The translations under genes and the position numbers were made by a program. From the IMG/VR virus record IMGVR_UViG_3300009320_000568, positions 1 to 22,524 of that record: 22,524 nt of DNA; one strand, written 5' to 3'. Below the pieces are notes generated by a model. It saw only the letters and a program-made list of their open reading frames with translations, did not search any database and was not told the DNA's origin. Origin of the DNA: a virus. Positions 3,652 to 21,644 of this stretch are shown here, piece after piece; within the stretch, counting starts at the first letter, position 1; the number at the start of each line of letters is the position of its first letter.

Positions 3652-3656
3652 CTGGT

Positions 3657-3662
3657 TCCTTT
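3657..3662 (-). promoter_or_regulatory. Ribosome binding site deciding a GTG start
   Basis: AAAGGA lies five bases upstream of GTG 3651 and includes part of the upstream TAA stop. No ATG is available near it in this frame, so the glycosyltransferase starts at GTG. Confidence 0.6.
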
Positions 3663-6504: not shown

Positions 6505-7133
6505 TTTAACCTCTCGAATAATAACATCTGTTGTCCATATGCTGCATCAGAACCAATCCACTTTCCAATAGAAGTGAACTTACAAAGCCCTTTACAAATC
6601 TCTTCATAAAAAGAATAGGGTTGAGTACTTCTCAAAAAGAACCCATCTGGATTATCATCAAACCCAGTTAAAGAATCCTCTTTGTAAATTGTAGCAAAGA
6701 ACTTTCCATTCTCTTTTAATACGGAAACTGTATTACTGATACACAACATTATAGCTTTCGGATGAAGATGAGTGAAAATTGAATTGGCAAAAGCAAAATC
6801 AAACTCCTGGCTAAATTTTTGAGCATCAAAATATTTCTCTACTGCCAATGTAGGATTCTTTCCCTCCAATCCATATTTTGCAATCCCAGTAAAACCAAGC
6901 TCTATATCTGCAAGAGAATAATCATATCCAAAGAATCTATCCTTATCCAGATACTTAATACAATCAATTCCACATCTCAGCCAACCAGTTCCAATATCCA
7001 AAAGATGATGATTTGGCTCCATCCCATTAGCTATCAGAAAATTAATCTCATTCATCCTATTGAGCCAATCCCCTTCTGTCTCTTTATTCTCCCAAGTTGG
7101 ATAACTAAATTTTGCCTTTTCTATTATTTTCAT
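6501..7133 (-). CDS. SAM-dependent methyltransferase
   Basis: A 210-aa class I methyltransferase. LLDIGTGWLRCG (44-55) is motif I, FFGYDYS (67-73) supplies the acidic residue binding the SAM ribose, and FDFAFANSIFTHLHP (111-125) matches motif IV/post-IV of Methyltransf_11/25-type enzymes. A further segment, LKENGKFFATIY, matches the late beta strand. It starts at an ATG overlapping the formyltransferase stop by four bases; the ribosome site is weak, so translational coupling is likely. It is AT-rich compared with the glycosyltransferase genes beside it. A small-molecule or glycan O-methyltransferase is most likely. The substrate is unknown, and a protein target cannot be excluded. Confidence 0.8.
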   Translation of the reverse strand: MKIIEKAKFSYPTWENKETEGDWLNRMNEINFLIANGMEPNHHLLDIGTGWLRCGIDCIKYLDKDRFFGYDYSLADIELGFTGIAKYGLEGKNPTLAVEKYFDAQKFSQEFDFAFANSIFTHLHPKAIMLCISNTVSVLKENGKFFATIYKEDSLTGFDDNPDGFFLRSTQPYSFYEEICKGLCKFTSIGKWIGSDAAYGQQMLLFERLK

Positions 7134-7816
7134 CTTGATTGCCTGCTTATCTTCAATTCATCAAACCTCTTCACCATTATTATTTCCTGCCAATGTTTCA
7201 TTCTTTTATGAACAATCCCTTCTGGTTCCAAAATATCATCCTGTATATTTCTTCCTGCCCAATCTTTTCGTTTATGAATAGCTCTTACCAACATATCAAT
7301 TTCCAAATCAAAATGTTTTATTGCAAAAGAATGAAATGAATCCAAAGGCTTTGGAAAAGTCCAACACCGTTCAATTAGTATTCCTGTATCTGCTTCTGCT
7401 CCTATTATATAAGAAGTTACTCCAATTTCTTCACCATTATATATAGCCCATTTCAAAGCATCTAACCCTCTTGTTCTTGGAAGATACCCAGGATGAGAAT
7501 TTATGATCTTTGTACTATTCACCACTTCTTCTGTCAAAATACCTGCTCCACCAATAAGAGCATAATCAAACTGGCTCAGGCACTTTGCCAAATCATCTGG
7601 CATCATCACATCATATGAAAAATTCAGAGCAAACTCCTGAATTGGAATATCGAAAGCCTTCAAGAACCTATGTGGATATAACGGTATATGTCCTTTCCTA
7701 TCTACCCAAGGAGTCACTATAACAGTTGCTTCCCCATATCCATTTGCCTTCATCCTCATGATCAATTCCTGAGTCTTCCTGTGAGGATGGTCATATGTCA
7801 AGATTGCAATATTCAT
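7130..7816 (-). CDS. Formyltransferase-family enzyme (PF00551 type), probable sugar N-formyltransferase
   Basis: A 228-aa protein of the 10-formyltetrahydrofolate-dependent formyltransferase family. Seen are FDYALIGGAGIL (83-94), IINSHPGYLPRTRG (104-117) with the catalytic N106 and H108, and TSYIIGAEADTGILIE (134-149) with the catalytic Asp at D143. This is the N-H-D triad used in methionyl-tRNA, GAR and amino-sugar formyltransferases. It lacks the C-terminal domain of tRNA formyltransferase. Its place among glycosyltransferases points to formylation of an amino sugar. The start chosen is ATG 7816, overlapping the upstream stop by four bases (ATGA) with AAGGAG upstream; a longer frame from 7900 has no supporting site. 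Substrate identity is inference. Confidence 0.8.
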   Translation of the reverse strand: MNIAILTYDHPHRKTQELIMRMKANGYGEATVIVTPWVDRKGHIPLYPHRFLKAFDIPIQEFALNFSYDVMMPDDLAKCLSQFDYALIGGAGILTEEVVNSTKIINSHPGYLPRTRGLDALKWAIYNGEEIGVTSYIIGAEADTGILIERCWTFPKPLDSFHSFAIKHFDLEIDMLVRAIHKRKDWAGRNIQDDILEPEGIVHKRMKHWQEIIMVKRFDELKISRQSR

Positions 7817-8625
7817 ACCCCTATGATCTCCTTTCCTTCTGCCTTTAGTTTCTCCTGCATTTCCCCAGCCCACCAACTCACTCCTCCACCAGCATGCCAA
7901 GCCATTCTTTCATCACCCGTTTTCCCATAAATATAACAGCCAACTGATTTTTCCATATCAGATGCTGTATAATCATATTTTCCTGCCTCCTTTCTTATCA
8001 TCGGAATAATGACTTCATCATTAAACGTATTATGAGTATTCACTTCCCACCATCTGAATATAGGCTTTATGAAATCTATTCTCCAAAGGGAAGCTCCAAA
8101 CCACCATTTCTCCTTGCAAACTAAAGGGATAAGAAACTTTGCTTCAATTCCTCCTATTAGTTCAGTCCAGCCCAATACCCTCTGTTCCTTCTCCCATTCA
8201 TATCTTGTACCATCCTGCAAAGAGCACCATTTAGCCTTCATCGTTTCCCTCTTATTGAAACAAATCTGATTGATATGATTATAATTCTCCATTACTCGAA
8301 TACAATCATCAAGAGGGATTACCTTTTCAGCCTGAAAGTCATCCTCCCACTTCAGTCCATATTTACAATCTGCCACCTCATTAAGATAATACCATACTGC
8401 ATACCCCTGCCCTTTCGCTGGATTAATCACATGAACTTTATAATCATGATTTTTTCCCCAAGCAATACATTCCTCAGAAGCTTCCTTATATCTCACGCTC
8501 TCAATAAGATGATATTCCAACTCTCCTGAGTACTGGAGATTCTTCAATAATGTAGGATGTGATGCTTCCAGTTGCTCTGGCCTCCCACAGCTCATTCTCC
8601 ATACTTCAATTTTTGGCCAATTCAT
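7813..8625 (-). CDS. GT-A-like glycosyltransferase with WEDDF motif
   Basis: A 270-aa protein related to the 215-aa protein at 5857-6504. Shared blocks are LQYSGELEY / LKYSGNLNF, LKWEDDF / VFWEDDW, ICFNKR / IAFNKS, SLWRIDFIKPIF / SVWRADYIKPRF, and a YIYG...G..WH / YFYG...G tail. The EDD motif (94-96) following a hydrophobic strand is typical of metal-dependent GT-A glycosyltransferases. It is rich in Trp and ends in a lysine-rich helix. I place the start at ATG 8625, because AAGGAGGG sits just upstream; a TTG at 8640 opens the same frame but would contain that site inside its own codons. A family name cannot be assigned with confidence, and the sugar is unknown. Confidence 0.65.
   Translation of the reverse strand: MNWPKIEVWRMSCGRPEQLEASHPTLLKNLQYSGELEYHLIESVRYKEASEECIAWGKNHDYKVHVINPAKGQGYAVWYYLNEVADCKYGLKWEDDFQAEKVIPLDDCIRVMENYNHINQICFNKRETMKAKWCSLQDGTRYEWEKEQRVLGWTELIGGIEAKFLIPLVCKEKWWFGASLWRIDFIKPIFRWWEVNTHNTFNDEVIIPMIRKEAGKYDYTASDMEKSVGCYIYGKTGDERMAWHAGGGVSWWAGEMQEKLKAEGKEIIGV
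7828..7833 (-). promoter_or_regulatory. Ribosome binding site for the formyltransferase start
   Basis: AAGGAG lies 11 bases upstream of ATG 7816, inside the end of the previous gene. It supports starting the formyltransferase at 7816 instead of 7900. Confidence 0.5.
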
Positions 8626-8629
8626 TTTA

Positions 8630-8637
8630 CCCTCCTT
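8630..8637 (-). promoter_or_regulatory. Ribosome binding site choosing ATG 8625
   Basis: AAGGAGGG stands four bases before ATG 8625 and overlaps the stop of the upstream GT2 gene by one base. It excludes the in-frame TTG at 8640 as the main start. Confidence 0.7.
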
Positions 8638-9620
8638 CAATCTAATACCCGAACTTTATTTATGGTACTTTGAATCTCACCAAATGGGCTTTTGTAATCT
8701 TCTTTCAGCTTCTTCACATACTCATCATAATCCATATCAATTATATACCTGCCCATGTGCCAGCTCTCAAATGAACCATGCAATCTTCTTGGGCCATATG
8801 GAGCAACAAAGTCCCTGCAAAATCCATATACATATTTCCCACCAGGACTCCTCTTTACAAACCCTCCTCCAAGATGAATCATTTTCCCAGCACTAAACAC
8901 TGGATAGTTCATCGTCTGGAATCCCTTTTCATAAAGGTATTCATGGAAGAAATTCAGAGCTGAGGTGGTCACCTTTTCATCTTCCCGTTTAAAATGATTT
9001 GGACGCACCACATAAATATCGTGTTCCTTCCAGGCAGAAGTCCTCAGAGCAGAAGCACATTGAGAAACGTACCCACCTCCACCAACTGATCGCCCTCTGG
9101 AATTCCACTTAAATCTATCCCCAAATATCACAATATCATTTGTCCTTGTCCCTGTTGCCTGACCAATGCCTAATACCTTTTCATTCTCCTCGAATAACTT
9201 TGCGATCTCAAATAACATGTCCTTTGAATCTTCCATAAAAATACAATCGCAGTCTGCCTGAAACACATAGTCAGTTTCTACATATTTCATCACTTCATTG
9301 AGAGAATAAGCATGCCCCATATTGGCCTTGTCAGAATCATAATCCCTATAATCAAAACTGCCATTCACCACCTTATTCTTGAACTCTTTATATTTATACA
9401 TATGAGGATATCTATACTCATCATGTAATATTACCCTTACCTTATCCACTTCAGTATTCAAATACTTTTCATACTCCCTCAGCGTCCCATTTTTATTTGA
9501 ATAATCATCCATCACAATCAGCTCTTTGTAAGAATCAGGATTTACATTATTCAGAACAGACTCCACAAACTGCCTCAAAAGCTCATAATCATTATAAGTA
9601 GTTGTGACTATTGAGAACAC
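8637..9620 (-). CDS. GT2-family glycosyltransferase
   Basis: A 327-aa GT-A glycosyltransferase of the GT2 type. FSIVTTTYNDYELLRQFVES (2-21) is the standard nucleotide-binding start, LIVMDDYSN (34-42) the second strand with its aspartates, and YVFQADCDCIF (118-128) contains the DCD metal motif (123-125). Residues 170-300 form the acceptor half, with many Gly, Tyr and Trp. It starts at GTG 9620, supported by GGGAGG seven bases upstream; no ATG is placed as well. A 51-base gap separates it from the upstream CgeB-like gene. No membrane segment is seen, so it is a soluble cytoplasmic enzyme. Sugar donor and acceptor are unknown. Confidence 0.85.
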   Translation of the reverse strand: MFSIVTTTYNDYELLRQFVESVLNNVNPDSYKELIVMDDYSNKNGTLREYEKYLNTEVDKVRVILHDEYRYPHMYKYKEFKNKVVNGSFDYRDYDSDKANMGHAYSLNEVMKYVETDYVFQADCDCIFMEDSKDMLFEIAKLFEENEKVLGIGQATGTRTNDIVIFGDRFKWNSRGRSVGGGGYVSQCASALRTSAWKEHDIYVVRPNHFKREDEKVTTSALNFFHEYLYEKGFQTMNYPVFSAGKMIHLGGGFVKRSPGGKYVYGFCRDFVAPYGPRRLHGSFESWHMGRYIIDMDYDEYVKKLKEDYKSPFGEIQSTINKVRVLD

Positions 9621-9627
9621 TTTTGAA

Positions 9628-9633
9628 CCTCCC
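9628..9633 (-). promoter_or_regulatory. Ribosome binding site deciding a GTG start
   Basis: GGGAGG lies seven bases upstream of GTG 9620, in the short gap after the CgeB-like gene, and supports GTG as the initiation codon. Confidence 0.7.
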
Positions 9634-9671
9634 AGTTTTCATCCTCACCGACATCTGGCTTCCATAACTTA

Positions 9672-10640
9672 TCATCTGGGCCATCTGAAATCCTCCAGTA
9701 AATAGCGCACCCGTTTTCTCTTTCCTGTAAACACATCCATTATATCCTTCATCCTTACTCTGTAAGTATGATTCTTTTGGCAATACTCAAACCCAGCCAT
9801 CCTGATTTTATTCCTCTGATCTGGGCAAGTCTCTACATAATATTTATATAAATCCACCACCTCCTTCATATCAAATTCATTAAATACCACATGATGAATT
9901 TTATCTGTGAATACCGTCTCAATGCCCTTTGAATACTTATTGATGCAAAACGCTCCTGCTCCGATATACTGAAACGGCCTGATTGAAAAATACATATTTA
10001 TATCATGCCTACCACAAATGTTTATTACTGCTCTGGTAATAGATGCAAGCTCATCTGTGGAGAATGTAGTATTCTTATGATAATTCTTGTTTGGAATTAC
10101 TGTCAACTTCTTCCATTCCTTTATCAGCTTCTTCAAAAAAATTGTTCTATCCTGATAAAGGTAACCACCAGAAAGATTACCAGTAAAAACCAAATCAAAT
10201 CGGCATTCCCTCTCTTCGACTTTATCCTGCTGGAAACATCCATACGGCCAATAATAAAGAGGCACTTTCCAGTTCTGAAATCCATCCCAATCCATACCAC
10301 CTATCAACACCCCATTCACCACTCCTGAAATATCTTCATCACATCTGGGAATTATTCTTGGGTCAGCCATATGATAATATATCCTGGTCCTGCCCTTCTT
10401 CTTTATTTCCTGAACCATTCCCATCTTTTCTGCTCTCTTGTTTCCTTGATCTGAGAAAAGCATATGACAGAAAATGTAATCAGGATCATAATCAGAAATA
10501 GTCTTCTTTACCTTGAGCAAATCCACATTAATATAATCCACCCCCATAGCATGCCAGCCATTCTGGATTGATCCCTCCACCACTCCATGAAGAAAATGTG
10601 AATTGTAACTATGCCAATCTCCAAGTGCCACTATCTTCAT
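9672..10640 (-). CDS. CgeB-like GT-B glycosyltransferase
   Basis: A 322-aa GT-B protein and paralogue of 4905-5870. Shared features are the N-terminal LGDWHSYNSHFLHG (6-19), FCHMLF near 57-62, YHMADPRI near 89-96, the WPYGCFQQ segment (131-138), FDLVFTGNLSGG (148-159), and SIRPFQYIGAGAF (219-231). The last motif is the donor-binding 'RPF.yiGaGa' of CgeB/Glyco_trans_1_2 proteins. The C-terminal helices carry VDLYKYYVETCP, equivalent to TKYKYYVEEHP in the paralogue. The ATG overlaps the upstream methyltransferase stop by four bases (ATGA) with GTGGAG upstream. Its role is cytoplasmic sugar transfer in the island's pathway; specificity is unknown. Confidence 0.8.
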   Translation of the reverse strand: MKIVALGDWHSYNSHFLHGVVEGSIQNGWHAMGVDYINVDLLKVKKTISDYDPDYIFCHMLFSDQGNKRAEKMGMVQEIKKKGRTRIYYHMADPRIIPRCDEDISGVVNGVLIGGMDWDGFQNWKVPLYYWPYGCFQQDKVEERECRFDLVFTGNLSGGYLYQDRTIFLKKLIKEWKKLTVIPNKNYHKNTTFSTDELASITRAVINICGRHDINMYFSIRPFQYIGAGAFCINKYSKGIETVFTDKIHHVVFNEFDMKEVVDLYKYYVETCPDQRNKIRMAGFEYCQKNHTYRVRMKDIMDVFTGKRKRVRYLLEDFRWPR

Positions 10641-11170
10641 ATTTTCTCCACATAAATGCCCATGCCGTACATCTCTTTATTATTCATAAACTCTTTTTCC
10701 TCTAATTCCATTATCCTATCATTACCGGGATCATTAAATCTACCAAAAAAAGTATATCTCCTTCCAATACCCAAAGATTCCAATAGTAATGAGCAAAATT
10801 CATGTGGTTCATAATGCCAGTTTCTATTAATCACAAATTTATTTGGAGTAGTAAAAAACAAACCTTCTTCCCATAAGCCAAAACAATCATAAAGAAAAGA
10901 ATCTACTTTTGCAACATGCTCAATTACATCAAATGCAGTAACTATATCATAACCTTCAGGAATATCCTCCAAATTACAAATTATATCCACATTGTCCATC
11001 ATAGCCCTATTAATATCATGAGTAGTCACCTTGTTCCCATTCTTCTGCATCCTCTCTTTACTCAATCCATTCCCTGCTCCAATATCAAGGATGGTTTTCC
11101 CTTTGAAAAAGTTCCCTGCCCATTCATGCCATACCTTTTGACAATCTGCTGGGGGTTCATTCACCCACAT
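10637..11170 (-). CDS. SAM-dependent methyltransferase (Methyltransf_11/23-like)
   Basis: A 177-aa class I methyltransferase. TILDIGAGNGLSKERM (26-41) is motif I, THDINRAMM (50-58) gives the acidic residue, and YDIVTAFDVIEHV (74-86) is the motif found in UbiE/UbiG-like and sugar methyltransferases. LFFTTPNK (104-111) and NWHYEPHEF (117-125) are the downstream blocks of the Methyltransf_23 type. It is short but complete. Start ATG 11170 has GGAGG seven bases upstream and overlaps the preceding methyltransferase by 14 bases. It probably methylates a glycan hydroxyl or carboxyl; the target is inferred from location only. Confidence 0.85.
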   Translation of the reverse strand: MWVNEPPADCQKVWHEWAGNFFKGKTILDIGAGNGLSKERMQKNGNKVTTHDINRAMMDNVDIICNLEDIPEGYDIVTAFDVIEHVAKVDSFLYDCFGLWEEGLFFTTPNKFVINRNWHYEPHEFCSLLLESLGIGRRYTFFGRFNDPGNDRIMELEEKEFMNNKEMYGMGIYVEKI

Positions 11171-11840
11171 ATGTATCCTCCTTTTTTGGAAATTGGTCTT
11201 CTACTTTACCATACTGTGATGTCTGTACCTTCCTAAATATTCCCAACCCATAACAATAAGGAAGACTAACATATTCAACATCAGCCCAATCAATAGTATC
11301 AACAACCCCAGTAACTTTATACTCATTATAAACATCATGAACCACTATAATTCCATTTTGCTTTAAATAAGAAAGACAATTTTGTAATTCCTTGCAAACA
11401 AAACTTTCACTTATATTCTTATCTCCAAAGTAATCCAAGAAAGCAAAATCCAATCCATGCTCTCTCTTATCCAAATAGTCCCAAGCCAAATTTGATTTCC
11501 CATGAAGGTAAGTGACCACTTCTCTCTCTGCCTCCGATAAAAGATATTGGAATCCTTCATTATTCCCAACTCCCTTTTTATCACAACAAATCAAATGTCC
11601 ACCTGTCTCTTTTATAGCTTTCATCAATACAAATGAACTTCTTCCAAAACCAATCTCCAATACATTCTGAGCATTCAATCCTCTTACAATTGAATATAAA
11701 GTCAATAAATGTTTTGATGTAGAATACCCCTCTTCAAACCAAGCTACCATCATTTGGTTGGATAAAAAAGCATTGAAGTTTCTACCCATATTTAAATCCC
11801 TTTCAAGCTCATCATGGCAATGCATCACAGCTTTAGACAT
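11157..11840 (-). CDS. SAM-dependent methyltransferase (Methyltransf_24-like)
   Basis: A 227-aa class I methyltransferase. NVLEIGFGRSSFVLMKAI (59-76) is motif I, LICCDKK (83-89) follows, LDFAFLDYFGD (130-140) is the motif IV region, and GIIVVHDVYNEY (163-174) matches the conserved His-Asp of Methyltransf_24/cephalosporin-hydroxylase-like enzymes. I set the start at ATG 11840, which has GGGAGG six bases upstream and overlaps the previous gene by 8 bases; the frame is open to 11939 but that would overlap by more than 100 bases. The N-terminal helix region (1-45) is rich in Met and His. It probably acts on a sugar or peptide group in the same pathway. Confidence 0.8.
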   Translation of the reverse strand: MSKAVMHCHDELERDLNMGRNFNAFLSNQMMVAWFEEGYSTSKHLLTLYSIVRGLNAQNVLEIGFGRSSFVLMKAIKETGGHLICCDKKGVGNNEGFQYLLSEAEREVVTYLHGKSNLAWDYLDKREHGLDFAFLDYFGDKNISESFVCKELQNCLSYLKQNGIIVVHDVYNEYKVTGVVDTIDWADVEYVSLPYCYGLGIFRKVQTSQYGKVEDQFPKKEDTYVGE

Positions 11841-13728
11841 CCAACACCTCCCTGAACATCTGCCTGTAATTCTCTGCCTGGATCTTCCAAGTCCAGTTTC
11901 TCTCCACCTCATTTCTCGCCTCAACTCCCATCTTGGCACATTTGGAACGATACTCTTTCAAATGAACCAACTTCTCGGCATAGGCATCTATGTCATCCCT
12001 ATCATCAATAATAAATCCATTCTCTTTATTGTAGAACTCAGGCACATTCCCTATTTTGTTCCCAATGAACGTTCTGCCTGTTGCTGCTCCTTCCAGAAGC
12101 ATATTTGGAGTTCCATCCATCACAGAAGCAATCAGAATTACATCCACTTGTTTATAAAGCAAGGGCATATCCTTATGTTTTGTTACATTCTTATCATTCA
12201 CTCTGGAAGTCTTGAACTTCAAATCCACCTTGGCCTTCTTGCAAGCTGGATGAAGAGTATTCTTCAATCCCTTGTAGTCATTATCCTTCCCAACAAAACC
12301 AGCTGCAAATTGATCCTTTATATCCCTTTTAAAATATTTGAACATCTTCTCATTCACTCCATTTGGCACATAATAATGGTTTTCATTGAACCCTTTTATC
12401 TCCTCATATAGCATCATACTATTGCCATGAATGGCTGTTGCCTCTGTCAATATCTTCTCATAATCCCTCATATTGACATATGTATGAGCTGTCACTCCTG
12501 TTATTATCTTCTGTTCCTTCCATTGTTTATTATTGACCCTACGATAAAAATCTACTTCATAAGTGAAATATATATCATGCCCACCTGGAGTTGATGGCTT
12601 ATTAGAAAAATACTCCACTGTGAAATCAAACTCATCAGACAAATGCTTCACAAGTTCATTTGTTTTATTGTCCCATGCCCACCCAGGACAGTCAACAAGT
12701 ATATATATCTTTGGCTTTTTCTTGCTTCTTCTTTTGACAACTTTCTTTTCTTCAACTTTTTTCTCTTCAATTTCTTTCGGCACATTATTATATGAAAAAT
12801 AGTCCTTCCAAATACTCAGGAACATCTTTTTGCTTGTAGCTTTTGTTCTCTCCACATCAAAATCATTTTGCTGATTCGTAGTGATACCTGAAACATGCTC
12901 CACCCCATGATTAGGAAGCATCCCAAGAGTATATCCCTGCACTTTTGCCCTGAAAGAAAAATCCACATCTTCATACCAGCATGGTGCATACCTCTCATCA
13001 AATCCACCAATAGACATAAAATGCTTTTTCTTTATAAGTAATCCACCTGCTCCAATATAAGAATATGCAGATGGAGTTCCTTTTCCCCCTCTGCAATTCC
13101 CTTCATGATCTATCTCCCAATTCTCTACACCTACCAAATCTGCCTTTACCTCAAGCAATCTCTCTATAATATCCTCAGGAACATATTGGTCGTTGTCTAA
13201 GAAAAATAAGTATTTCGTCTGGGCCCTCTTTGCTCCCTGGTTTCTTGCAATTCCACATCCTAAATTATACTGATTTCTAATATAGACAAAGTCCATACTC
13301 TCTGCCCATTCCTTTGTTCTATCAGTACTATTATTATCTACCAATATAATCTTGAATACACTTGTCTTTGATAATTTCTTAATACACTTTTGAGTATACT
13401 TCAGTTGATCATGACAGACCACAATAGCTGTCACAGGATTCTCAGGATCTTCTTTTTCAACTTCTTCCTTCTTAATTGAAGGAATGAATACTGAAGGCTG
13501 GGCTTTTGGGTTGATTATGAAATTGCTCTTAAAACAGCATAATGCCTCAAAACGAGCACCTTCATCAACTCTCCGAAACTCTAAACATTTCCCACATCTT
13601 AATATTGTATCCTGCCCAAATATAACAACTTGATTCCCACAAACCTGACAGGAAATGTTAGTCAGAACTCCCTCATTGAATTCTTTCTCCTTACCACATT
13701 TTGCACACTTAACTTTTACTAAACCCAT
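11833..13728 (-). CDS. Zinc-ribbon + GT2 + GT4-like bifunctional glycosyltransferase
   Basis: A 631-aa protein with three parts. Residues 1-70 carry paired cysteines (C8/C11 and C27/C30; C45/C48 and C64/C65), which look like one or two zinc ribbons. Residues 97-310 are a GT2 domain: VTAIVVCHDQLKYTQKCI, ILVDNNSTD (128-136), FFLDNDQYVP with DND 178-180, and WYEDVDFSFR (251-260). After a Lys/Glu-rich linker (316-340) comes a GT-B domain (345-630) with PNGV (455-458), FVGKDNDYKG, and an E-x-rich donor site, MLLEGAATG...NVPE (E546, E564). The start has AAAAGGAG seven bases away. It is the first gene of the island, just after the capsid hairpin. It probably makes two linkages, and the zinc ribbon may bind the acceptor or DNA. 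Confidence 0.85.
   Translation of the reverse strand: MGLVKVKCAKCGKEKEFNEGVLTNISCQVCGNQVVIFGQDTILRCGKCLEFRRVDEGARFEALCCFKSNFIINPKAQPSVFIPSIKKEEVEKEDPENPVTAIVVCHDQLKYTQKCIKKLSKTSVFKIILVDNNSTDRTKEWAESMDFVYIRNQYNLGCGIARNQGAKRAQTKYLFFLDNDQYVPEDIIERLLEVKADLVGVENWEIDHEGNCRGGKGTPSAYSYIGAGGLLIKKKHFMSIGGFDERYAPCWYEDVDFSFRAKVQGYTLGMLPNHGVEHVSGITTNQQNDFDVERTKATSKKMFLSIWKDYFSYNNVPKEIEEKKVEEKKVVKRRSKKKPKIYILVDCPGWAWDNKTNELVKHLSDEFDFTVEYFSNKPSTPGGHDIYFTYEVDFYRRVNNKQWKEQKIITGVTAHTYVNMRDYEKILTEATAIHGNSMMLYEEIKGFNENHYYVPNGVNEKMFKYFKRDIKDQFAAGFVGKDNDYKGLKNTLHPACKKAKVDLKFKTSRVNDKNVTKHKDMPLLYKQVDVILIASVMDGTPNMLLEGAATGRTFIGNKIGNVPEFYNKENGFIIDDRDDIDAYAEKLVHLKEYRSKCAKMGVEARNEVERNWTWKIQAENYRQMFREVLDV
11847..11852 (-). 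promoter_or_regulatory. Ribosome binding site inside the end of the upstream gene
   Basis: GGGAGG lies six bases upstream of ATG 11840 within the last codons of the two-domain glycosyltransferase. It fixes the start of the 227-aa methyltransferase. Confidence 0.65.
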
Positions 13729-13785: not shown

Positions 13786-15123
13786 TTACGCAGCAGCCGT
13801 TATCAATCTCACAAAACCCTGAGCAAGACCAATCACCAACGCCCACCTCTGATAAATCTTGAATCGTGTTCTATTGGTAGCCCACAATCCCCACGGATCA
13901 ACCTGCAAGGAAGTAGAGCCCAGCCTATTACCCACAAGGAAATATCTTAAATTCCCAAATGTTATAAAAGGCTGGTTCGCTGAGGTATCAGTCGGCATTT
14001 GGGTATTCTCCCTGAAAGGATACCCCCAAATATTACCTCCCTGTGCCCCAGAAACATTGGGCTGAAAGATAAGACTTCCATTATCATCCTTTAATGTTCG
14101 AACGAAATGAAACACATTACCTCTCATATAAAAAGCTGCCCCATCTTTCCTGAGCCCATCCAGCTTTCCAATCATCTCGGAAAGGTAGTCAGCAGTGACA
14201 TGGGAAAATGCAATTGAACCAGTTCCCATTGTAACTGAGTACCCACAAGCAGCTGTAAGCAAACCAGAAACAGGATCACCTGTTCCCTCAAACATCTGAC
14301 TATCCAATTCCAGACCAGCAGCCTCAACCATCTCCGAAGTAATCCAGGAAACCACATCAGAAACAGTATCAGCCAGGGTGGTATCACGGACAACCATATA
14401 TGCCGAAAGTTCCTGAGCAGAAAGCTCAACCTCAGTCACAGTCGCATCACTCTGGGAAGTTGTATTTCCCCAAGTGACTGACGAAGTTGCACTCTCAGCA
14501 TTCCAGGACTTCTTCTCACTTGTCATCGGAACCACTCTGGCATACTGAAGAGCATGTGACTTTTCTCTCATAAAAGCCAGAATTTCAGCTTCGATGATAT
14601 CAGGTAACTGCATAGTATTCCCAGTATCACCAAGAGCCGTCTTCACCTTCCCAGGGCCATACAAATCGTAAAACTTCTGGACATCCTTGGGATTCGGTGT
14701 CGCAAGATTGGCCTTGATAAAAGCGCACATATACCTGGAAAGTGCGATTCTCGCTTCCTCAGTCATAGGCTCCTTATTGGGATGAAGAAATTTATCCTGC
14801 AAAGCCTTTCCCTGCATAGCCATATTATATCCTGCATAAATCTCATCCTGTTCCTCAGGAGTTGCATCGGCATCTGCATCAGGTATGGGAAAACCACGTC
14901 TTGCAAATTCCTTATAGGCTGCCAATTGAGCTTCCAATTCATCCGCCCTTTCCTTGACAGCATTGTTCCCGCCTTCAAACTTATTTGCCAGCTCCCTCAC
15001 GACCCCAGATAATTCCTTCACAGGATCATCATCCACATTCATGTGAACAGCAGGAGCTTCAGGAGCAACCACAGGTTCCTTCACTTCTACAAATTCACCT
15101 TTCTCATTCTTCTCGTACAACAT
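13786..15123 (-). CDS. Major capsid protein, HK97 fold
   Basis: A 445-aa HK97-type (Phage_capsid family) coat protein. Residues 33-78 form a charged helical region like the delta/scaffold segment of HK97-type precursors. The shell domain begins around 165 (GNTMQLPDIIEAEIL). Typical blocks include AFMREKSHALQYARVVPM, VTEVELSAQELSAYMVV, a spine-helix region DVVSWITSEMVEAAGLELDS, FEGTGDPVSGLLTA, and LRKDGAAFYMRGNVFHFVRTLKD (P-domain). QVDPWGLWATNRTRFKIYQRWALV follows near the C-terminus. A cleavage site around 155-170 is likely but not proven. The strong TAAGGAGG ribosome site overlaps the protease stop codon. Its GC content is visibly higher than that of the island genes. Confidence 0.95.
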   Translation of the reverse strand: MLYEKNEKGEFVEVKEPVVAPEAPAVHMNVDDDPVKELSGVVRELANKFEGGNNAVKERADELEAQLAAYKEFARRGFPIPDADADATPEEQDEIYAGYNMAMQGKALQDKFLHPNKEPMTEEARIALSRYMCAFIKANLATPNPKDVQKFYDLYGPGKVKTALGDTGNTMQLPDIIEAEILAFMREKSHALQYARVVPMTSEKKSWNAESATSSVTWGNTTSQSDATVTEVELSAQELSAYMVVRDTTLADTVSDVVSWITSEMVEAAGLELDSQMFEGTGDPVSGLLTAACGYSVTMGTGSIAFSHVTADYLSEMIGKLDGLRKDGAAFYMRGNVFHFVRTLKDDNGSLIFQPNVSGAQGGNIWGYPFRENTQMPTDTSANQPFITFGNLRYFLVGNRLGSTSLQVDPWGLWATNRTRFKIYQRWALVIGLAQGFVRLITAAA

Positions 15124-15130
15124 AATCTAA

Positions 15131-15138
15131 CCTCCTTA
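15131..15138 (-). promoter_or_regulatory. Very strong ribosome binding site of the capsid gene
   Basis: TAAGGAGG, a near-complete match to the anti-Shine-Dalgarno sequence, stands seven bases before ATG 15123. Its TAA is the stop of the protease gene. High translation of the coat protein is expected. Confidence 0.75.
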
Positions 15139-16275
15139 TTCCTTCGGCATCAACTCAATAAGCCGCTTCAGTTCTTTTGTCAGTTCCTTAATCGCTTCCA
15201 TATCGTACCCAGTAGAACTCTTTGCCTGCCCATTGTCTGTTTGACTGGGAGGTGTTAATATTTCATCGTACTTATTCTTTACTCCTTGAGTCCCCTCTGT
15301 GGAGTTTTCCTCCAAGGGAACAGGAGTGATTTCTAATTCATTTACAAAACTTACATAAGAGTCAAGAAGTTTTTTATAATCTTCTAATATCTCTTTGTAT
15401 TGTTCTAATTCAGTTTTAACCTCCTCAAATTTTGCATCTGGATCAGTAACAAATTCCTCTGTCAAAGTAGTATGCTCCATCGTTGCATCTTCCTTTGGTT
15501 CTCTCCTCTTTACCGGAGGTCTGTCAGCCTTTACTGTCTCAAATACTTCCTCCACATCCTCATCCTTTAATCCATTTACCACAATCTGAGTTTTCTTATT
15601 TTCATCAATAAACTCAATGCCCTTTTTCACTTTCTCCAACTCCTCCAGAATATCATCCTTATGACTCGGCTCTGGAATCTCTACATTCTGCATAGTGATT
15701 AATTTCTCAAAGTCCTGGTCAAAGGATTTCATTGCCTCCTGCAAAGCATTCGGATTGCAAGGAACAGCACAACCGGAAAGTTCTAAAAGGATTTGCTTCA
15801 GGAATCTTCTGCCCACATATATATCTTCATCACCTTCATCCTTTTCCAAAGGCTCCGACTTCTTAGGAATAAACCCAACACTTGAAGCGTTGATAATATC
15901 CTCATTGTAAAGAGCCAATATCTGATCAGCAAAAGGATACAAGCCCTCAGTGGGAAAAACTTCAACAAATTTCATCCTTGTAGGATTCCTCATCTTGATC
16001 ACCTTGCTGGCTGCTGCCAATGGGACTGAAGAATAATTATGCGCCCATAAGAACACAGGATTGTTCAAAAAGTCCTTTATGTCCCACCCCTTCATCATTA
16101 TTATATCACCATCTCTGTCCTTGGTTTCGTCCGTACCCACAATAGTCAATTTTCTTGCCTTCATGTCCACTGATTTCACAATCTTAATCCCTGGTGTAAA
16201 GTATGAAGCAAACGCCTCATCTTTACCATTCCACAATACAGGATTCCCACTCTTGTCAAGTATCTTGTTAGCCAT
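15136..16275 (-). CDS. HK97-type prohead protease (U35) with C-terminal scaffold-like extension
   Basis: A 379-aa protein. The N-terminal 1-195 is a U35 prohead serine protease: DRDGDIIMMKGWDIKDF, then NNPVFLWAHNYSSVPLA with the catalytic His at H79, INASSVGFIP with the probable nucleophile S132, and LLELSGCAVPCNPNA with E165. The remaining 180 residues are acidic and form long charged helices (206-230 and 280-320), unlike a bare protease of about 200-220 aa. This is a protease-scaffold fusion, the usual arrangement in phages lacking a separate scaffold gene. It cleaves itself and the capsid delta segment during maturation. Start ATG 16275 has GGAG upstream and lies two bases after the previous stop. 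Confidence 0.9.
   Translation of the reverse strand: MANKILDKSGNPVLWNGKDEAFASYFTPGIKIVKSVDMKARKLTIVGTDETKDRDGDIIMMKGWDIKDFLNNPVFLWAHNYSSVPLAAASKVIKMRNPTRMKFVEVFPTEGLYPFADQILALYNEDIINASSVGFIPKKSEPLEKDEGDEDIYVGRRFLKQILLELSGCAVPCNPNALQEAMKSFDQDFEKLITMQNVEIPEPSHKDDILEELEKVKKGIEFIDENKKTQIVVNGLKDEDVEEVFETVKADRPPVKRREPKEDATMEHTTLTEEFVTDPDAKFEEVKTELEQYKEILEDYKKLLDSYVSFVNELEITPVPLEENSTEGTQGVKNKYDEILTPPSQTDNGQAKSSTGYDMEAIKELTKELKRLIELMPKE
15489..15496 (-). promoter_or_regulatory. Possible internal ribosome site for a nested scaffold product
   Basis: AAAGGAAG precedes an in-frame ATG at 15480 (Met266 of the protease). Initiation here would yield a 114-aa acidic coiled-coil product, like nested scaffold genes in some phages. 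The spacing is acceptable but not ideal, so this is only a possibility. Confidence 0.25.
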
Positions 16276-16277
16276 TT

Positions 16278-16526
16278 TCAGTCTCCTTCCATGATATCAG
16301 ATGCTCGAATGTAACTCCCACTAAAATCATACTTTAAGTATTTTAAAAATTTTAATCCATCTTTCGGAAAATAAAATTTGCCCTTATAAAAAATACCATT
16401 CTTTTTTACGTTTTTAGCAAAGTTATTAAGTCTACTACTCCAAGTAATAACTTTACCATCATAAAAAAACTTGCCCAAAAGTTTCTGTTTTCCATCATTG
16501 ATATTATAAATTTCTACATATTCCAT
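16278..16526 (-). CDS. Small AT-rich protein of unknown function after the portal-kinase fusion
   Basis: An 82-aa protein I do not recognise. It is basic and rich in Lys, Phe and Tyr, with short beta-like segments (YVEIYNI, LLGKFFYDGKVITW, GIFYKGKFYF) and a C-terminal SGSYIRASDIMEGD. There are no membrane segments and no cysteines. The start is supported by AGGAG eight bases upstream. It lies 14 bases after the portal fusion and two before the protease. By hand count, 54 of 240 bases in 16321-16560 are G or C (about 22%), far below the capsid gene. Its place directly downstream of a MuF fusion carrying a kinase-like domain makes a partner or immunity role imaginable, but nothing in the sequence proves it. 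Confidence 0.75.
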   Translation of the reverse strand: MEYVEIYNINDGKQKLLGKFFYDGKVITWSSRLNNFAKNVKKNGIFYKGKFYFPKDGLKFLKYLKYDFSGSYIRASDIMEGD

Positions 16527-16540
16527 AGATACTCCTATAA

Positions 16541-19423
16541 TTATAAACTATAATAATAATAATTGTTAAATAAATATCCAATTTCATTTTGCTCAATACT
16601 AAAAAGAAGCATTTCCTGCCTTGCCTTAAATCCAGCTATTTCTCCTTTTGATATATGCATCCCTTTAGCTAAATCCTCAATATCAATTTTCCGTATTCTA
16701 TCAACTAATTTTCTTTTTACAGCATCAGGAATAAGATCATCAAATGCTTCATCCGCTCCACCATATAGAGAGGCTATATCATCAACAAGTGAGCACCTAA
16801 ATTCTGACAAACCAGCCCAATCATCTAAATCATCTATATATTTTGGAAAACTATAACCATGATCAATCAAAACTGGTTTTGGAGTATCTACTATTTTCAT
16901 CCAATTACTACTATGTCTATCAGTATTTCCAATCAAATAATCATAAACTCCTATCCTATATCTATCTACATCAGATATAGTATGAAACGGATCTGGGCTT
17001 TCTGCAAATGTTTTAGCATTATCTACAAATTTTTGACAAGAACCCTTATATGTTAAATCATCTATCTTTGTAGTTCTCATTACAGTTGTTGGGACCATAT
17101 CATCCATATCAATCTCTTTTGCCACTCTATAAGCCAGAACCTCCCTGTCTGCAAGAGTGAATTTTTTATTAGTAATTGATTTGAAGTCTTTTCGCATCCC
17201 TTCAAACTCTTCCCCACTAATAGGTTTAAATACCCCTTTTCCTTTTCCTTCACCAAAATCTAATACAAAAGATTCATTAACACCACCACCAAGATTACTT
17301 GAACTACTTACAGGAGAATCTCTCAAAACAGATTCTTCTTCCATCGCTTCTGTAGGTCTTTCTTCCCCTGGCTTATCAATTGGCCCTTCATCACTGGCAA
17401 CCTCAATACATCTGCATTGTATCACCTGATGAGCTGGTCCAAGAAAGTCACCAGGATATCTCAATGTAGTTCCATCTGACATAATCCAATCTTCTTTCAT
17501 CCCTACTCTTTTCCCATGCATAATCACATGGTTAGCTTCTGCATTATGACCATCCCTTACCTTCTTATCTAATGAAGTGAACCATTCTTTGAAAGCAAAT
17601 CCACTTTCGGTCAATGATGCATGCCTTCCAAAATTACTCGCCCCTACCACTTCTGTCCGGGCAATCACTTTGGCCCTTTTCGCTCCATTCTTAAATAATA
17701 CTTTAAATCTATCTGCAATCTGATCAATACTTTCTCCATTTGCTGCTCCAGCATGAAGGGCAGCCCTTATCTTTTCCTTCATAGTTTCAGTTACAACTTT
17801 TGCTATTTCAATTTCCTTTGCTGCAAGATAATCCAAAGCTGCCGGATCTGTCAAGCTGAAACTTATATCAATTCCCATCTCCTCTTTAATAGATGCAATT
17901 CCAGCCTTGATTGAATCTTCATAAAATGGCCTGGAATGTTTTTGCAATAGCTCTCCATACTTTTCAAAATCCTCTGTTATGACATCTGAATAAGACTTGT
18001 CATCCAAATATAGAAGTCTCAAAGTTTCCTTTCTCATCTCAAAGAATACCCTCTGTACCTTCTTTTCAAATCCCTTTTCCAGTGGGATGGTCTTCGCTAT
18101 AAAGTTTCTCCATATATGCTCTTTCCTTGTCTCTGCCAAATCCTTTTTATCAGGAACAGGAGCTTTTGTCTCAATCACCTTCCCTTCAATTTTTCTCACC
18201 CCAGTAGAAACCAATTCCTCTAATACATCCGGCTCCATTGAAAGTTCATTTGCAGGAGTCAAATTGAGAGGAGCCAAACCCACATCTCCCCATTCCACAG
18301 GACCAATACCCAAATCCAATATCTGGTCAATCAGATTGATGGGATATGTCATACTGAAAAGTTTTGCAGCCATATCAATTTTATTCTTCATTTCTTCTTC
18401 AAGAGCTTCAATCTTGGTGATATCAAATATCACCCTCATCCCTGTATTGACTCCAAAGAAGACCTGATTCATTGAATCTGTAATAATCCTCATTATTGGA
18501 AGATTCGTAAACTGCCACCATTCTTTCCTCTGCTCCCTGCTTGTGGCATAATTCACATCCTCAATAACTGACAGGACGGCTTTCTTCATCCCAAACACCT
18601 GGAACAACTCATCCCTGCTATATTGCCTTAACTGAATAAATCCCATGTCACTCTGAGTCAATCCTATTGGATCTGCCTTCATTGAGCCTTCCAGTAAAAG
18701 GAATCTGTGTGACTTTCTGTAGCCCTCATGGTTACTTCTTATACGCTCCATAAACTGGTCTCTCTGTTCAGTCCCCAAATTCTTCTCAGTAGAAAATACA
18801 GTCCCAGGAACAGCCCCATTCTCAAAGAACTTATTATTATACACAGAGGACTTAAAATCACCTTCCAATGGTAATTTACCAGCAACCAATGGAGCCTGCC
18901 CAAATACAGGATCAGTTGGATTGAAAAACTTCGCCTGAACTACTTCATCAAAATAAAGTGTATATCCATCTTTCCCTTCCTGGGGCTTGTATATCCAGTA
19001 AATGGGTTGATTGTTATTGTCCTTCTTCACCTCCATTGAACTTCTTTTTATCACCCACATAGAAGCTGGTATAATCTTCTTTGAAGGTGGAAAAGGAATC
19101 GCCCATACATTACCATCCAATAAAAGATATCCAACCAAAGCCTCAACAAACTGTGATCCTGTCATCATCTCATTTGGGTACATAAATAGCTGTTGCCAAG
19201 GATCATCTATCTTGACATTCTGCCAAATCTTCCCGTTATACTTCTGGACAATTAGTGGGATCTGACTAATTGCCCTCCCTGTAGTCGATATGATAGAATA
19301 TGCAAGGGCAGATTTCTTGTAAGGATCATTTACCACCCCCAAAGAGTCATCAAGATCCATATTCTTAATGAAAGCTTGCTCCCAGTTCTTTGTTCTTCCA
19401 AATAACAGGTCAAATTTATTCAT
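16541..19423 (-). CDS. Portal - MuF - kinase-like fusion protein
   Basis: A 960-aa protein. Residues 1-400 are an HK97-type portal: YSIISTTGRAISQIPLIV (42-59), GYLLLDGNVWAIPFP (98-112), FGMKKAVLSV near 277-286, and NYATSREQRKEWWQFTNLPI (291-310). Residues about 520-675 are a MuF domain: AKVIARTEVVGASNFGR (584-600), DKKVRDGHNAEAN (619-631), GPAHQVIQCRC (662-672). After a Ser/Glu-rich linker (676-715), residues 716-935 look like a kinase of the HipA/PI3K-like type: Gly-rich GEGKGKGVFKP with K733, E761 in helix C, GNTDRHSSN (D835, H837, N840), and LIDHGYSF (D854). Portal docks DNA packaging; MuF proteins enter the capsid and can be injected. The ATG overlaps the stop of a 49-aa gene (ATGA). Confidence 0.9.
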   Translation of the reverse strand: MNKFDLLFGRTKNWEQAFIKNMDLDDSLGVVNDPYKKSALAYSIISTTGRAISQIPLIVQKYNGKIWQNVKIDDPWQQLFMYPNEMMTGSQFVEALVGYLLLDGNVWAIPFPPSKKIIPASMWVIKRSSMEVKKDNNNQPIYWIYKPQEGKDGYTLYFDEVVQAKFFNPTDPVFGQAPLVAGKLPLEGDFKSSVYNNKFFENGAVPGTVFSTEKNLGTEQRDQFMERIRSNHEGYRKSHRFLLLEGSMKADPIGLTQSDMGFIQLRQYSRDELFQVFGMKKAVLSVIEDVNYATSREQRKEWWQFTNLPIMRIITDSMNQVFFGVNTGMRVIFDITKIEALEEEMKNKIDMAAKLFSMTYPINLIDQILDLGIGPVEWGDVGLAPLNLTPANELSMEPDVLEELVSTGVRKIEGKVIETKAPVPDKKDLAETRKEHIWRNFIAKTIPLEKGFEKKVQRVFFEMRKETLRLLYLDDKSYSDVITEDFEKYGELLQKHSRPFYEDSIKAGIASIKEEMGIDISFSLTDPAALDYLAAKEIEIAKVVTETMKEKIRAALHAGAANGESIDQIADRFKVLFKNGAKRAKVIARTEVVGASNFGRHASLTESGFAFKEWFTSLDKKVRDGHNAEANHVIMHGKRVGMKEDWIMSDGTTLRYPGDFLGPAHQVIQCRCIEVASDEGPIDKPGEERPTEAMEEESVLRDSPVSSSSNLGGGVNESFVLDFGEGKGKGVFKPISGEEFEGMRKDFKSITNKKFTLADREVLAYRVAKEIDMDDMVPTTVMRTTKIDDLTYKGSCQKFVDNAKTFAESPDPFHTISDVDRYRIGVYDYLIGNTDRHSSNWMKIVDTPKPVLIDHGYSFPKYIDDLDDWAGLSEFRCSLVDDIASLYGGADEAFDDLIPDAVKRKLVDRIRKIDIEDLAKGMHISKGEIAGFKARQEMLLFSIEQNEIGYLFNNYYYYSL

Positions 19424-19569: not shown

Positions 19570-19785
19570 TTACACTCTTCAAAATATCTACACTCCCACA
19601 TCGGAGTAGTGATTTCATATTTCACACAATTCTCATAAATAGCTTGTGCAATTCTACAATTATTGAGAGTATTAGGCTTAAATAATTTGCAAGAATGGCA
19701 TAAACAATATTCTCTATGCTTTTCCTTTTAAATCTTCTCTCACGAAAACAATACTCCCATGATGTTCATAAGTAATATAATTCAT
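19566..19785 (-). pseudogene. Cys-rich small protein gene split by a single-base insertion
   Basis: Two frames here make one protein if one A is removed. The first frame, from ATG 19785 (GGGAG upstream, ATG overlapping the phosphoesterase stop), reads MNYITYEHHGSIVFVREDLKGKA and stops at 19714. The next frame continues from GKHREYCLCHSCKLFKP to its TGA at 19566-19568, overlapping the next ATG. Dropping one A from the AAAA run of GGAAAAGCAT (about 19720-19723) restores GKHREYCLC and a 72-aa protein with seven cysteines, including CLCHSC. It carries an NCRIAQAIYENCV...TPMWEC pattern, which I recall from small phage Cys proteins. The second frame has no good start of its own. A sequencing or assembly indel, a real mutation, or programmed frameshifting are all possible. 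Confidence 0.7.
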
Positions 19786-20651
19786 TATATTTCTCCCTTC
19801 AACGTTCTCGTAAATGGAACAATACTAATAGTTGCACTCCCAAGATGAGTGGGTTTATAACCTCTTTGCTCCCCATAAGTCGTAACTCCCTGGGCATATG
19901 TTTTCAAATAGCTCCCTGAAATAACTCCAATCTTTTCTTTATGTGTCAACTCAGTACAAGTTGTATTTGCTCCAATAGTTGACTGTCTCCTGCCAACCTG
20001 GTCATGTACATGGGCTACCATATAAATATCTGCGTCAAAAGATTCCATAAATTGAATTAATCTATTCAACTTTCCTCCACTTGTCTGAGCAAACCCAGCC
20101 CCATGATGTACATAAAACCTGAAGCTCTGAGATTCTCTCCTATCATTATCCTCTGGACTCTCATTCATCAATTCAGGGATTCTTGATCCTTTTCCTCTTG
20201 CAAAAATCAAATCAAATAAAGCAGAATATTCCAGATTAGGAACTCCTAATTCAGTGCATAACCAAGCATGAAGATGCGATTGCTCTTTTTCCGTCTGATA
20301 TTTTTTTTCATGATTTCCCAAAAGCAACCCCAAACATTTATCTTTAATCGGACTAAATAAATCCTTTATTTCACTGACCTGAACTTTTCCAGACTTGCCC
20401 AAATCCTCCACCTTAATTCTGTCAGGTACACAATCTGGATCAAACCTCTTATCTGTATACCCAATATAATCAGCATAATCACCTCCACCTACCCAAAAGG
20501 AAAATGGATCATTCTGAATAGTTCTTATGTCTCTTTTTATTCCTTTCACATCACAAGCCTTATTCCACCAATGCAAATCAGCCAAGTTCCAAATTGTAAA
20601 CTCATCTTTCTTGCTATTGTGTATTATATATCTTTTACCCGCAGCTTCCAT
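19785..20651 (-). CDS. Calcineurin-like metallophosphoesterase
   Basis: A 288-aa metallophosphoesterase with the full motif set: NLADLHWWN (D25, H27), GGGDYADY (D58), LGNHEKKY (N113, H114), VHHGAG (H182, H183), and MVAHVHD (H214, H216). These coordinate two metal ions, as in calcineurin-like phosphatases, nucleases and cyclic nucleotide phosphodiesterases. No signal peptide is seen, so it is cytoplasmic. Start ATG 20651 has AGGGGG upstream and lies nine bases after the preceding stop. It sits in a run of small lysis-like and accessory genes just before the portal. The substrate is unknown; DNA end or nucleotide processing during packaging or takeover is a guess. Confidence 0.85.
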   Translation of the reverse strand: MEAAGKRYIIHNSKKDEFTIWNLADLHWWNKACDVKGIKRDIRTIQNDPFSFWVGGGDYADYIGYTDKRFDPDCVPDRIKVEDLGKSGKVQVSEIKDLFSPIKDKCLGLLLGNHEKKYQTEKEQSHLHAWLCTELGVPNLEYSALFDLIFARGKGSRIPELMNESPEDNDRRESQSFRFYVHHGAGFAQTSGGKLNRLIQFMESFDADIYMVAHVHDQVGRRQSTIGANTTCTELTHKEKIGVISGSYLKTYAQGVTTYGEQRGYKPTHLGSATISIVPFTRTLKGEI

Positions 20652-21233: not shown

Positions 21234-21644
21234 TTAATTTGTAATACCCTGTTTCTTGTCATAAGACCTGATTCCTGCTACCCCAAGAAGTACAGTAGCC
21301 AATCCAATTGCTTCTTGAACTTCAATCGCTGGCAGTTCAACTGTTTTTCCTACCATTATCAATACTGACTGGACTATCGGTCGCAATATCCAACCCCACC
21401 CAAGAGACAAAGCACATATCCAACCAATCATAGGTCTCCAGCCAGCAACAAAAAGCGATCTATGTCCTGCTTCTATCTTATTAACTTCCACTTGCCACTT
21501 AGCAGCGTTTTGAGCCATTTTGACTTTTAAAAGTTCTGCTGCTCTTTTCTCGTCTGGTGTTTCCACAAAACGATCAATAGCTCCGCCAATACCATTGGCA
21601 AGCTCTTTTACTCCACCACCCAATAACTTTGAGAGTATTCCCAT
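21234..21644 (-). CDS. Holin of the GTA 3TM type
   Basis: A 136-aa protein. It has an N-terminal amphipathic GILSKLLGGGVKELANGIG, a helical linker, then HRSLFVAGWRPMIGWICALS (61-80), the hallmark of GTA_holin_3TM family proteins. Hydrophobic helices lie at about 69-98 and 108-126, and a basic tail (SYDKKQG) ends it. Holins of this type permeabilise the inner membrane to release endolysin. No endolysin is seen in the window. The ATG overlaps the upstream TAA by one base. The family call is fairly firm; the role as functional holin is from family knowledge. Confidence 0.8.
   Translation of the reverse strand: MGILSKLLGGGVKELANGIGGAIDRFVETPDEKRAAELLKVKMAQNAAKWQVEVNKIEAGHRSLFVAGWRPMIGWICALSLGWGWILRPIVQSVLIMVGKTVELPAIEVQEAIGLATVLLGVAGIRSYDKKQGITN

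What the first reader, a model, noticed from the sequence alone, without database searches (positions are those of the whole stretch)
16541..18000. Kinase-like domain fused to the C-terminus of a portal-MuF protein
Beyond the portal and MuF parts, residues 716-935 show a Gly-rich loop with lysine (VFKP), a helix-C glutamate, GNTDRHSSN and LIDHG, the order and spacing of HipA/PI3K-like/actin-fragmin-kinase-like folds. MuF proteins are known carriers of C-terminal toxin domains. An injected or capsid-borne kinase could act on the host early in infection, or on virion proteins.
Basis: partly seen in the sequence, partly recalled or inferred. Interest (0 to 1): 0.75.

Follow-up and report, generated by a model that had tools for sequence, protein, structure and literature searches.

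The report
Phage head protein carrying a kinase
This virus has fused an enzyme of the kinase type to the protein that forms the DNA gateway of its head, and the gene right behind it encodes a small partner protein that follows this kinase in dozens of unrelated viruses, which suggests a toxin-like effector carried in the virus particle together with its own antidote.

Summary
The 960-aa gene (16541-19423, minus strand) is portal + MuF + a C-terminal kinase domain (about residues 691-956). Pfam PI3_PI4_kinase passes its curated cut-off. A confident AlphaFold2 model (pLDDT 90, pTM 0.91) matches type II PI 4-kinases best, then CtkA, Fam20 and HipT/HipA. The catalytic residues K733, E761, D835, N840 and D854 are kept across the family.

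The fusion is not unique. About 49 non-redundant viral genes carry this domain at the C-terminus, mostly on MuF proteins but also on Mu-like and lambda-like portals. tblastn of 50,697 deposited phage records gave at most two remote matches.

New here: the 82-aa gene directly downstream (16278-16526) belongs to an unannotated family. It follows 38 of 49 viral kinase genes, against 2 of 457 other long ORFs. In whole-record and p82-first searches it was almost always beside a kinase. Actinobacterial, apparently secreted polymorphic-toxin genes with the same kinase have a similar downstream gene.

Best reading: a MuF-type phage polymorphic toxin whose toxin is a PI4KII-like, probably protein Ser/Thr, kinase with a cognate immunity protein. 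Kinase fold and partner linkage are shown; packaging, delivery, toxicity, substrate and inhibition are inferred.

The parts
16541..19423 (-). 960-aa gene: portal-MuF-kinase fusion
   Evidence: ORF and translation; Pfam and PHROG domains
18353..19300 (-). HK97-type portal domain, residues 42-357
   Evidence: PF04860, E 6e-51; phrog_2662 portal with MuF, E 6e-79 over residues 29-682
17408..17773 (-). MuF (head morphogenesis) domain, residues 551-672
   Evidence: PF04233, 40.7 bits, cut-off 29.6
17354..17407 (-). Pro/acidic linker between MuF and kinase, residues 673-690
   Evidence: read from the translation; in the listed matches among 939 deposited phage records homology ends at or before about residue 692
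16556..17353 (-). PI4KII-like kinase domain, residues 691-956
   Evidence: PF00454 37.5 bits, cut-off 27.1; AlphaFold2 pLDDT 90.2, pTM 0.91; PI4KII Z 22.9 over 243 residues
17225..17227 (-). K733 (VFKP), ATP-binding lysine
   Evidence: invariant in alignments A1 and A2; not part of the search motif
17141..17143 (-). E761, helix-C glutamate
   Evidence: invariant in A1, 90% or more in A2
16919..16921 (-). D835 (GNTDRH), predicted catalytic aspartate
   Evidence: kept in members found without the GNTDRH search pattern
16904..16906 (-). N840, metal-binding asparagine
16862..16864 (-). D854 (LIDHG), DFG-like metal-binding aspartate
   Evidence: invariant in A1 and A2
16532..16536 (-). AGGAG ribosome-binding-site-like motif of the 82-aa gene, 4 nt after the kinase stop codon
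   Evidence: sequence
16278..16526 (-). 82-aa partner protein 'p82', predicted immunity protein or regulator of the kinase
   Evidence: family conserved directly downstream of kinase genes; model pLDDT 94.6; no Pfam or PHROG family
15136..16275 (-). prohead protease with a scaffold-like coil; candidate enzyme for releasing the kinase
   Evidence: phrog_80 head maturation protease E 5e-16; its role here is inferred
13786..15123 (-). major capsid protein, HK97 family
   Evidence: PF05065 E 4e-38

Best explanation
The gene is a MuF-type phage polymorphic toxin. The portal-MuF part builds the protein into the head at the DNA gateway (inferred from homology). The C-terminal domain is a complete, apparently active PI4KII-like kinase (fold and catalytic residues shown by prediction and alignment). 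After head assembly the kinase is probably cut loose, for instance by the phage's own prohead protease at the Pro-rich linker, and leaves with the DNA (inferred). In the infected cell it most likely phosphorylates host proteins on Ser/Thr and slows or redirects host functions (inferred). The 82-aa protein made from the next, closely spaced gene binds and silences the kinase in the cell that makes the virions, and in lysogens (tight genetic linkage shown; binding and inhibition inferred).
For: Kinase: Pfam above cut-off; model pLDDT 90, pTM 0.91; PI4KII Z 22.9, 3.1 A over 243 residues; sequence profile E 1.6e-15; K, E, D, N, D kept even in members found without the motif search. Virion link: 23 of 44 family proteins carry a MuF domain and four carry a Pfam portal domain; all 44 match PI3_PI4_kinase. 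Recruitment: portal fusions need 3 changes on the domain tree, at least 2 forced by well-supported branches. Partner: p82 starts 11-78 nt after 37 kinase genes and 332 nt after one; 38/49 kinase ORFs against 2/457 other ORFs, Fisher p 8e-45; in whole viral records all strong p82 matches sit beside a kinase, and the single hit in a 7.3-Mb Micromonospora genome does too; a p82-first motif scan found a new contig with MuF-kinase directly upstream. [quoted passage not shown] a MuF nucleotide kinase toxin with immunity proteins has been tested (PMC12226406). The kinase domain also ends actinobacterial polymorphic-toxin-like genes, one ORF also ending in an EndoU nuclease. Plant type II PI4Ks act as protein kinases and do not make PI4P (PMC4986951).
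Against: No experiment: neither virion location, release, toxicity, substrate nor inhibition is shown. In several phages p82 is the N-terminal domain of the next head protein (L048, L025, L008), which fits an antidote less easily. A portal stays with the emptied head, so delivery needs a cut that was not shown. Lifestyle of this phage (temperate or not) is unknown, and MuF toxins were reported only from temperate phages. p82 has no detectable similarity to known antitoxins such as the HipS part of HipA.
Confidence: 0.55

Rival explanations
1. p82 is not an antidote but an activator, chaperone or docking subunit that loads the kinase into the head or completes its fold; the pair works as a virion-borne regulatory kinase rather than a toxin.
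For: p82 is fused to the N-terminus of other head or polyvalent proteins in L048, L025, L008, L042, L034, L006; almost strict 1:1 pairing with the kinase; tandem pairs in L077 and L204.
Against: In most genomes p82 is a free small protein directly downstream, the arrangement of immunity genes; similar downstream genes follow the kinase in actinobacterial toxin-like genes with no phage head.
Confidence: 0.25
2. The kinase acts inside the capsid or during assembly, phosphorylating portal, scaffold or capsid proteins, and is never delivered.
For: It is fused to the portal, which is not ejected; the family also joins Mu-like and lambda-like portals.
Against: The same domain occurs in bacterial toxin-like proteins without a head and in polyvalent proteins; none of 939 deposited phage records with a related portal or portal-MuF matches 80% or more of the protein, so head building does not need the kinase.
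Confidence: 0.12
3. It is a true lipid kinase that phosphorylates phosphatidylinositol or another lipid of the host membrane.
For: Closest fold and sequence relatives are type II PI 4-kinases; several family members lie in actinobacterial genomes, and such hosts contain PI (own knowledge).
Against: In the profile alignment the stretch of PI4KII between the lysine and helix C that carries its palmitoylation loop is missing in the phage family; most bacteria lack PI (own knowledge); plant type II PI4Ks do not make PI4P and phosphorylate proteins.
Confidence: 0.08

Closest known systems
MuF polymorphic toxins of temperate phages (Jamet et al. 2017, PMC5576092)
   Same: MuF head domain, C-terminal effector shared with other toxin families, small gene directly downstream
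   Different: The toxin is a PI4KII-like kinase (the word kinase does not occur in that paper); here portal and MuF are one gene; the partner family is undescribed; lifestyle unknown
Apk2 MuF toxins (PMC12226406)
   Same: MuF toxin with an ATP-using C-terminal domain and tested immunity proteins
   Different: Adenosine 3'-pyrophosphokinase that makes (p)ppApp, an unrelated fold
Type II phosphatidylinositol 4-kinases
   Same: Fold (Z 22.9), whole-domain sequence similarity including IDNGLAFP
   Different: No palmitoylation-loop region; fused to phage head proteins; paired with p82
HipBST / HipA toxin-antitoxin kinases (PMC9325769, PMC8262856)
   Same: Atypical kinase with DRHxxN-type active site and a small partner gene
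   Different: HipA_C and HipA_2 below Pfam cut-off; order is kinase then partner; p82 shows no detectable HipS-type similarity; no HTH partner seen
Polyvalent-protein kinases of phages and conjugative elements (Iyer et al. 2017, PMC5512222)
   Same: Kinase domains in injected multidomain phage proteins
   Different: Those lost the C-terminal subdomain and have an insert between H and D; here the C-lobe is complete
Phage database entries such as A0A6J5S481 ('Phage portal protein, HK97', 1201 aa) and HSTV-2 L7TJZ0
   Same: Phage proteins with a PI3K/PI4K-like fold, one annotated as a portal
   Different: Only machine annotation; no partner gene or function noted there

Membership tests
MuF polymorphic toxin | MuF domain in the N-terminal part | tested here: met
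   PF04233 40.7 bits, cut-off 29.6
MuF polymorphic toxin | C-terminal extension of 100 aa or more with an effector domain shared with other toxin families | tested here: met
   270-aa kinase; same domain in actinobacterial toxin-like ORFs; that these are secreted toxins is inferred from the sequence, no Pfam or PDB match of the N-terminal parts
MuF polymorphic toxin | small (<150 aa) gene directly downstream | tested here: met
   82-aa gene starting 14 nt after the stop codon
MuF polymorphic toxin | temperate phage | tested here: inconclusive
   22.5-kb fragment; no integrase or repressor found among the ORFs examined; record completeness not estimated
MuF polymorphic toxin | toxicity and neutralisation | not testable with these tools
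   needs expression assays
Type II PI 4-kinase | fold and sequence profile | tested here: met
   Z 22.9; E 1.6e-15
Type II PI 4-kinase | Cys-rich palmitoylation loop between lysine and helix C | tested here: not met
   region absent in the phage family in the profile alignment with 4hnd; location of the loop from own knowledge
Type II PI 4-kinase | PI 4-kinase activity | not testable with these tools
   needs biochemistry
HipA/HipT | HipA_C profile above cut-off | tested here: not met
   13.6 bits against 30.5
HipA/HipT | HipS-type partner | tested here: inconclusive
   hhalign of p82 profile with single HipA N-terminus: probability 0.2%; no PDB fold match for p82
Fam20C | Fam20C profile above cut-off | tested here: not met
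   19.6 bits against 26.8
SCO1664 family (TIGR03843) | NCBIfam cut-off | tested here: not met
   33.3 bits against 172.4; distant relative only
Polyvalent-protein kinases (Iyer 2017) | loss of the C-terminal subdomain | tested here: not met
   model has a full helical C-lobe; definition

The most novel reading that the evidence does not exclude
A previously undescribed two-gene module, PI4KII-like kinase plus p82, is a mobile toxin/immunity (or kinase/regulator) cassette that viruses have repeatedly fused to the portal vertex (MuF, Mu-like and lambda-like portals) and that actinobacterial toxin genes share, so some tailed phages deliver a protein kinase with their DNA.
Probability: 0.5. Interest if true: 0.75.

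Novelty: new variant of a known kind. Interest (0 to 1): 0.62.

Why it matters
MuF toxins are known mainly as nucleases, peptidases, ADP-ribosyltransferases and alarmone synthetases. A PI4KII-like kinase with its own conserved partner adds an effector class and names a candidate immunity family that can be tested directly. It was easy to miss because tblastn of 50,697 deposited phage records finds at most two remote relatives. The close likeness to eukaryotic type II PI 4-kinases also bears on where that enzyme family came from.

Tried and rejected
Single-protein scans of viral contigs with the window kinase, the whole protein, p82 and a p82 consensus found no relatives; a GNTDRH motif scan and the profile did. 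p82 as a HipS/HipA N-subdomain: suggested by a look at the strand order, but hhalign gave 0.2% and no HipA or HipS structure appeared among the fold matches, so it is not claimed. p82 as phosphorylation target via GSY: rejected, the S and Y are not conserved. Invariance of GNTDRH is partly circular because that motif was the search pattern; members found otherwise (L231, L077, L171, L204, L207) keep D-R-H/N and N with changed neighbours. PADLOC hits touch only the DRH motif. Window chimerism: GC content and skew are even. A PDB sequence search of the Micromonospora N-terminal domain gave nothing, so its secretion route is inferred from sequence patterns only. Literature searches found no report of this kinase in phages, within an open-access library. 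tblastn of p82 and its consensus against deposited phages gave nothing.

Full report
WHAT IS THERE. The minus-strand ORF 16541-19423 encodes 960 residues. Pfam places an HK97-type portal at residues 42-357, a MuF domain at 551-672 and PI3_PI4_kinase in the C-terminal part; the isolated C-terminal 269 residues score 37.5 bits against a curated cut-off of 27.1, while Fam20C, HipA_C and HipA_2 stay below theirs. NCBIfam shows a distant hit to the SCO1664 family, 33 bits against a cut-off of 172. PHROG models of portal proteins that include MuF cover residues 29-682. Downstream lie an 82-aa gene, a prohead protease (phrog_80) and the major capsid protein. GC content and skew are even across the window, so there is no sign of a chimera. 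The record is a 22,524-base virus contig with no completeness estimate.

THE DOMAIN IS A KINASE. AlphaFold2 on a 23-sequence alignment of relatives gives pLDDT 90.2 and pTM 0.91 with a beta-rich N-lobe and a helical C-lobe. Foldseek and VIA rank type II PI 4-kinases first (Z 22.9, 3.1 A, 243 residues), then Helicobacter CtkA (16), Fam20 (15), HipT (about 13) and HipA (about 12). By sequence alone the family profile matches PI4KII-alpha at E 1.6e-15, from the VFKP lysine through RExxA, VPxT, GSxQxF and NTDRxxxNW to IDNGLAFP. K733, E761, D835, N840 and D854 are invariant or nearly so in 23 and in 44 proteins. The GNTDRH motif had been used to collect most of them, so its invariance is partly circular; members found without it (L231, the first kinase of L077, L171, L204, L207) still keep K, E, D-R-H, N and D-x-G or close variants. 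The enzyme is therefore probably active. This part is prediction, but strong.

IT IS A FAMILY ATTACHED TO HEAD PROTEINS. A motif scan and a profile scan of 2.9 million viral contigs gave 49 non-redundant viral ORFs with this domain at 95 bits or more, nearly always at the C-terminus. Of 44 full-length proteins scanned, all 44 match PI3_PI4_kinase, 23 carry MuF, two a Mu-type portal, one a lambda-type portal, and one (the window) an HK97-type portal; single members also carry zeta toxin, 2H phosphoesterase or acetyltransferase domains, the repertoire known from polyvalent proteins. On the domain tree portal fusions need three changes, at least two forced by well-supported branches; the window falls in a supported clade with MuF kinases, so the simplest history is a MuF-kinase whose MuF was already one gene with the portal. 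In 50,697 deposited phage records tblastn finds nothing with the window domain and at most two remote relatives with other family queries; related portal and portal-MuF proteins occur in 939 such records, none matching 80% or more of the query, and the listed ones stop before the kinase. The domain is thus an accessory. Some predicted viral proteins in BFVD share the fold, one named 'Phage portal protein, HK97'.

THE PARTNER GENE. The 82-aa gene begins 14 nt after the kinase stop codon, behind an AGGAG motif. It has no Pfam or PHROG family. Homologues lie directly downstream of kinase genes in other contigs: the start falls 11-78 nt after the stop codon in 37 of 46 cases with room, and 332 nt in one. 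38 of 49 kinase ORFs but 2 of 457 other long ORFs in the same loci have it downstream (Fisher p 8e-45; relatedness of the sequences makes the p-value optimistic). Because those loci were centred on kinases, two further tests were run. In nine whole viral records (20-120 kb) every strong p82 match lies beside a kinase, and the only match in a 7.3-Mb Micromonospora genome lies about 100 nt downstream of one of its kinase genes. p82 motif scans of the viral collection that knew nothing of the kinase hit six contigs; all have the kinase directly upstream, one of them (L231) new (L025, L048, L054 and L074 or its duplicates). Several kinase genes without a profile match still have a small p82-like ORF at the same place (L050, L195, L089, L088, by eye). 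p82 folds confidently (pLDDT 94.6, pTM 0.82) but resembles nothing significant in the PDB. It can also be the N-terminal domain of the next head or polyvalent protein (L048, L025, L008, L042), and kinase-p82 pairs occur in tandem (L077, L204).

HOW IT PROBABLY WORKS. MuF toxins are held to ride in the head and be delivered with DNA; [quoted passage not shown] MuF Apk2 toxins with immunity proteins have been tested (PMC12226406). This locus fits that pattern: MuF, a C-terminal enzyme and a small gene directly behind it. The same kinase, with p82-like downstream genes, ends actinobacterial ORFs that look like secreted polymorphic toxins, one with a second EndoU nuclease domain (the secretion route is my reading of the sequence, not a database match). 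I therefore favour a virion-borne toxin-like kinase with a cognate inhibitor. Protein Ser/Thr phosphorylation is more likely than lipid phosphorylation: the palmitoylation-loop region of PI4KII is missing, most bacteria lack phosphatidylinositol (own knowledge), HipT is a Ser/Thr kinase and plant type II PI4Ks phosphorylate proteins and do not make PI4P (PMC4986951). Since portals are not ejected, delivery would need a cut between MuF and kinase; the Pro/acidic linker and the neighbouring prohead protease make this possible but do not show it.

WHAT IT IS NOT. It fails the curated cut-offs of HipA_C, Fam20C and SCO1664, and it is not the C-lobe-less kinase of polyvalent proteins. p82 cannot be assigned to HipS.

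LIMITS. No wet-lab evidence; single-chain predictions only; lifestyle and host unknown; literature limited to open-access text.

Noticed in passing
1834-13728: About 12 kb of glycosyltransferase and methyltransferase genes (plus a formyltransferase-like gene) sit between the major capsid gene and tail-completion genes, on the same strand; possible virion or host-surface glycosylation cassette.
   Followed up: partly
19785-20651: A metallophosphoesterase (phrog_7339, DNA repair exonuclease-like) is the first gene upstream of the portal fusion, where a terminase would be expected.
   Followed up: no
21234-21644: GTA-type three-TM holin gene upstream of the head genes, an unusual place for lysis.
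   Followed up: no
L092 1-8805: Giant open frame in Actinophytocola algeriensis with two kinase domains of this family and a C-terminal EndoU nuclease; a weak p82 match lies between the two kinases in another reading frame.
   Followed up: partly
L077 1469-5159; L204 4123-6872; L171 and L207: Tandem arrays of kinase and p82 genes, up to two pairs in a row.
   Followed up: partly
L226 4846-6771: Myxococcus phage Mx1, a named phage record, encodes a distant member annotated 'kinase' (WNM70334.1) without a recognisable p82.
   Followed up: partly
L227, L228 and plasmid hits H44-H59: Mostly actinobacterial plasmids carry distant relatives of the kinase, nearly all annotated hypothetical.
   Followed up: no
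alignment A1 (kinase of window 16544-17353) against PDB sequences: The phage family is closer in sequence to eukaryotic type II PI 4-kinases than to any bacterial kinase of known structure, a possible lead on the origin of that enzyme family.
   Followed up: no
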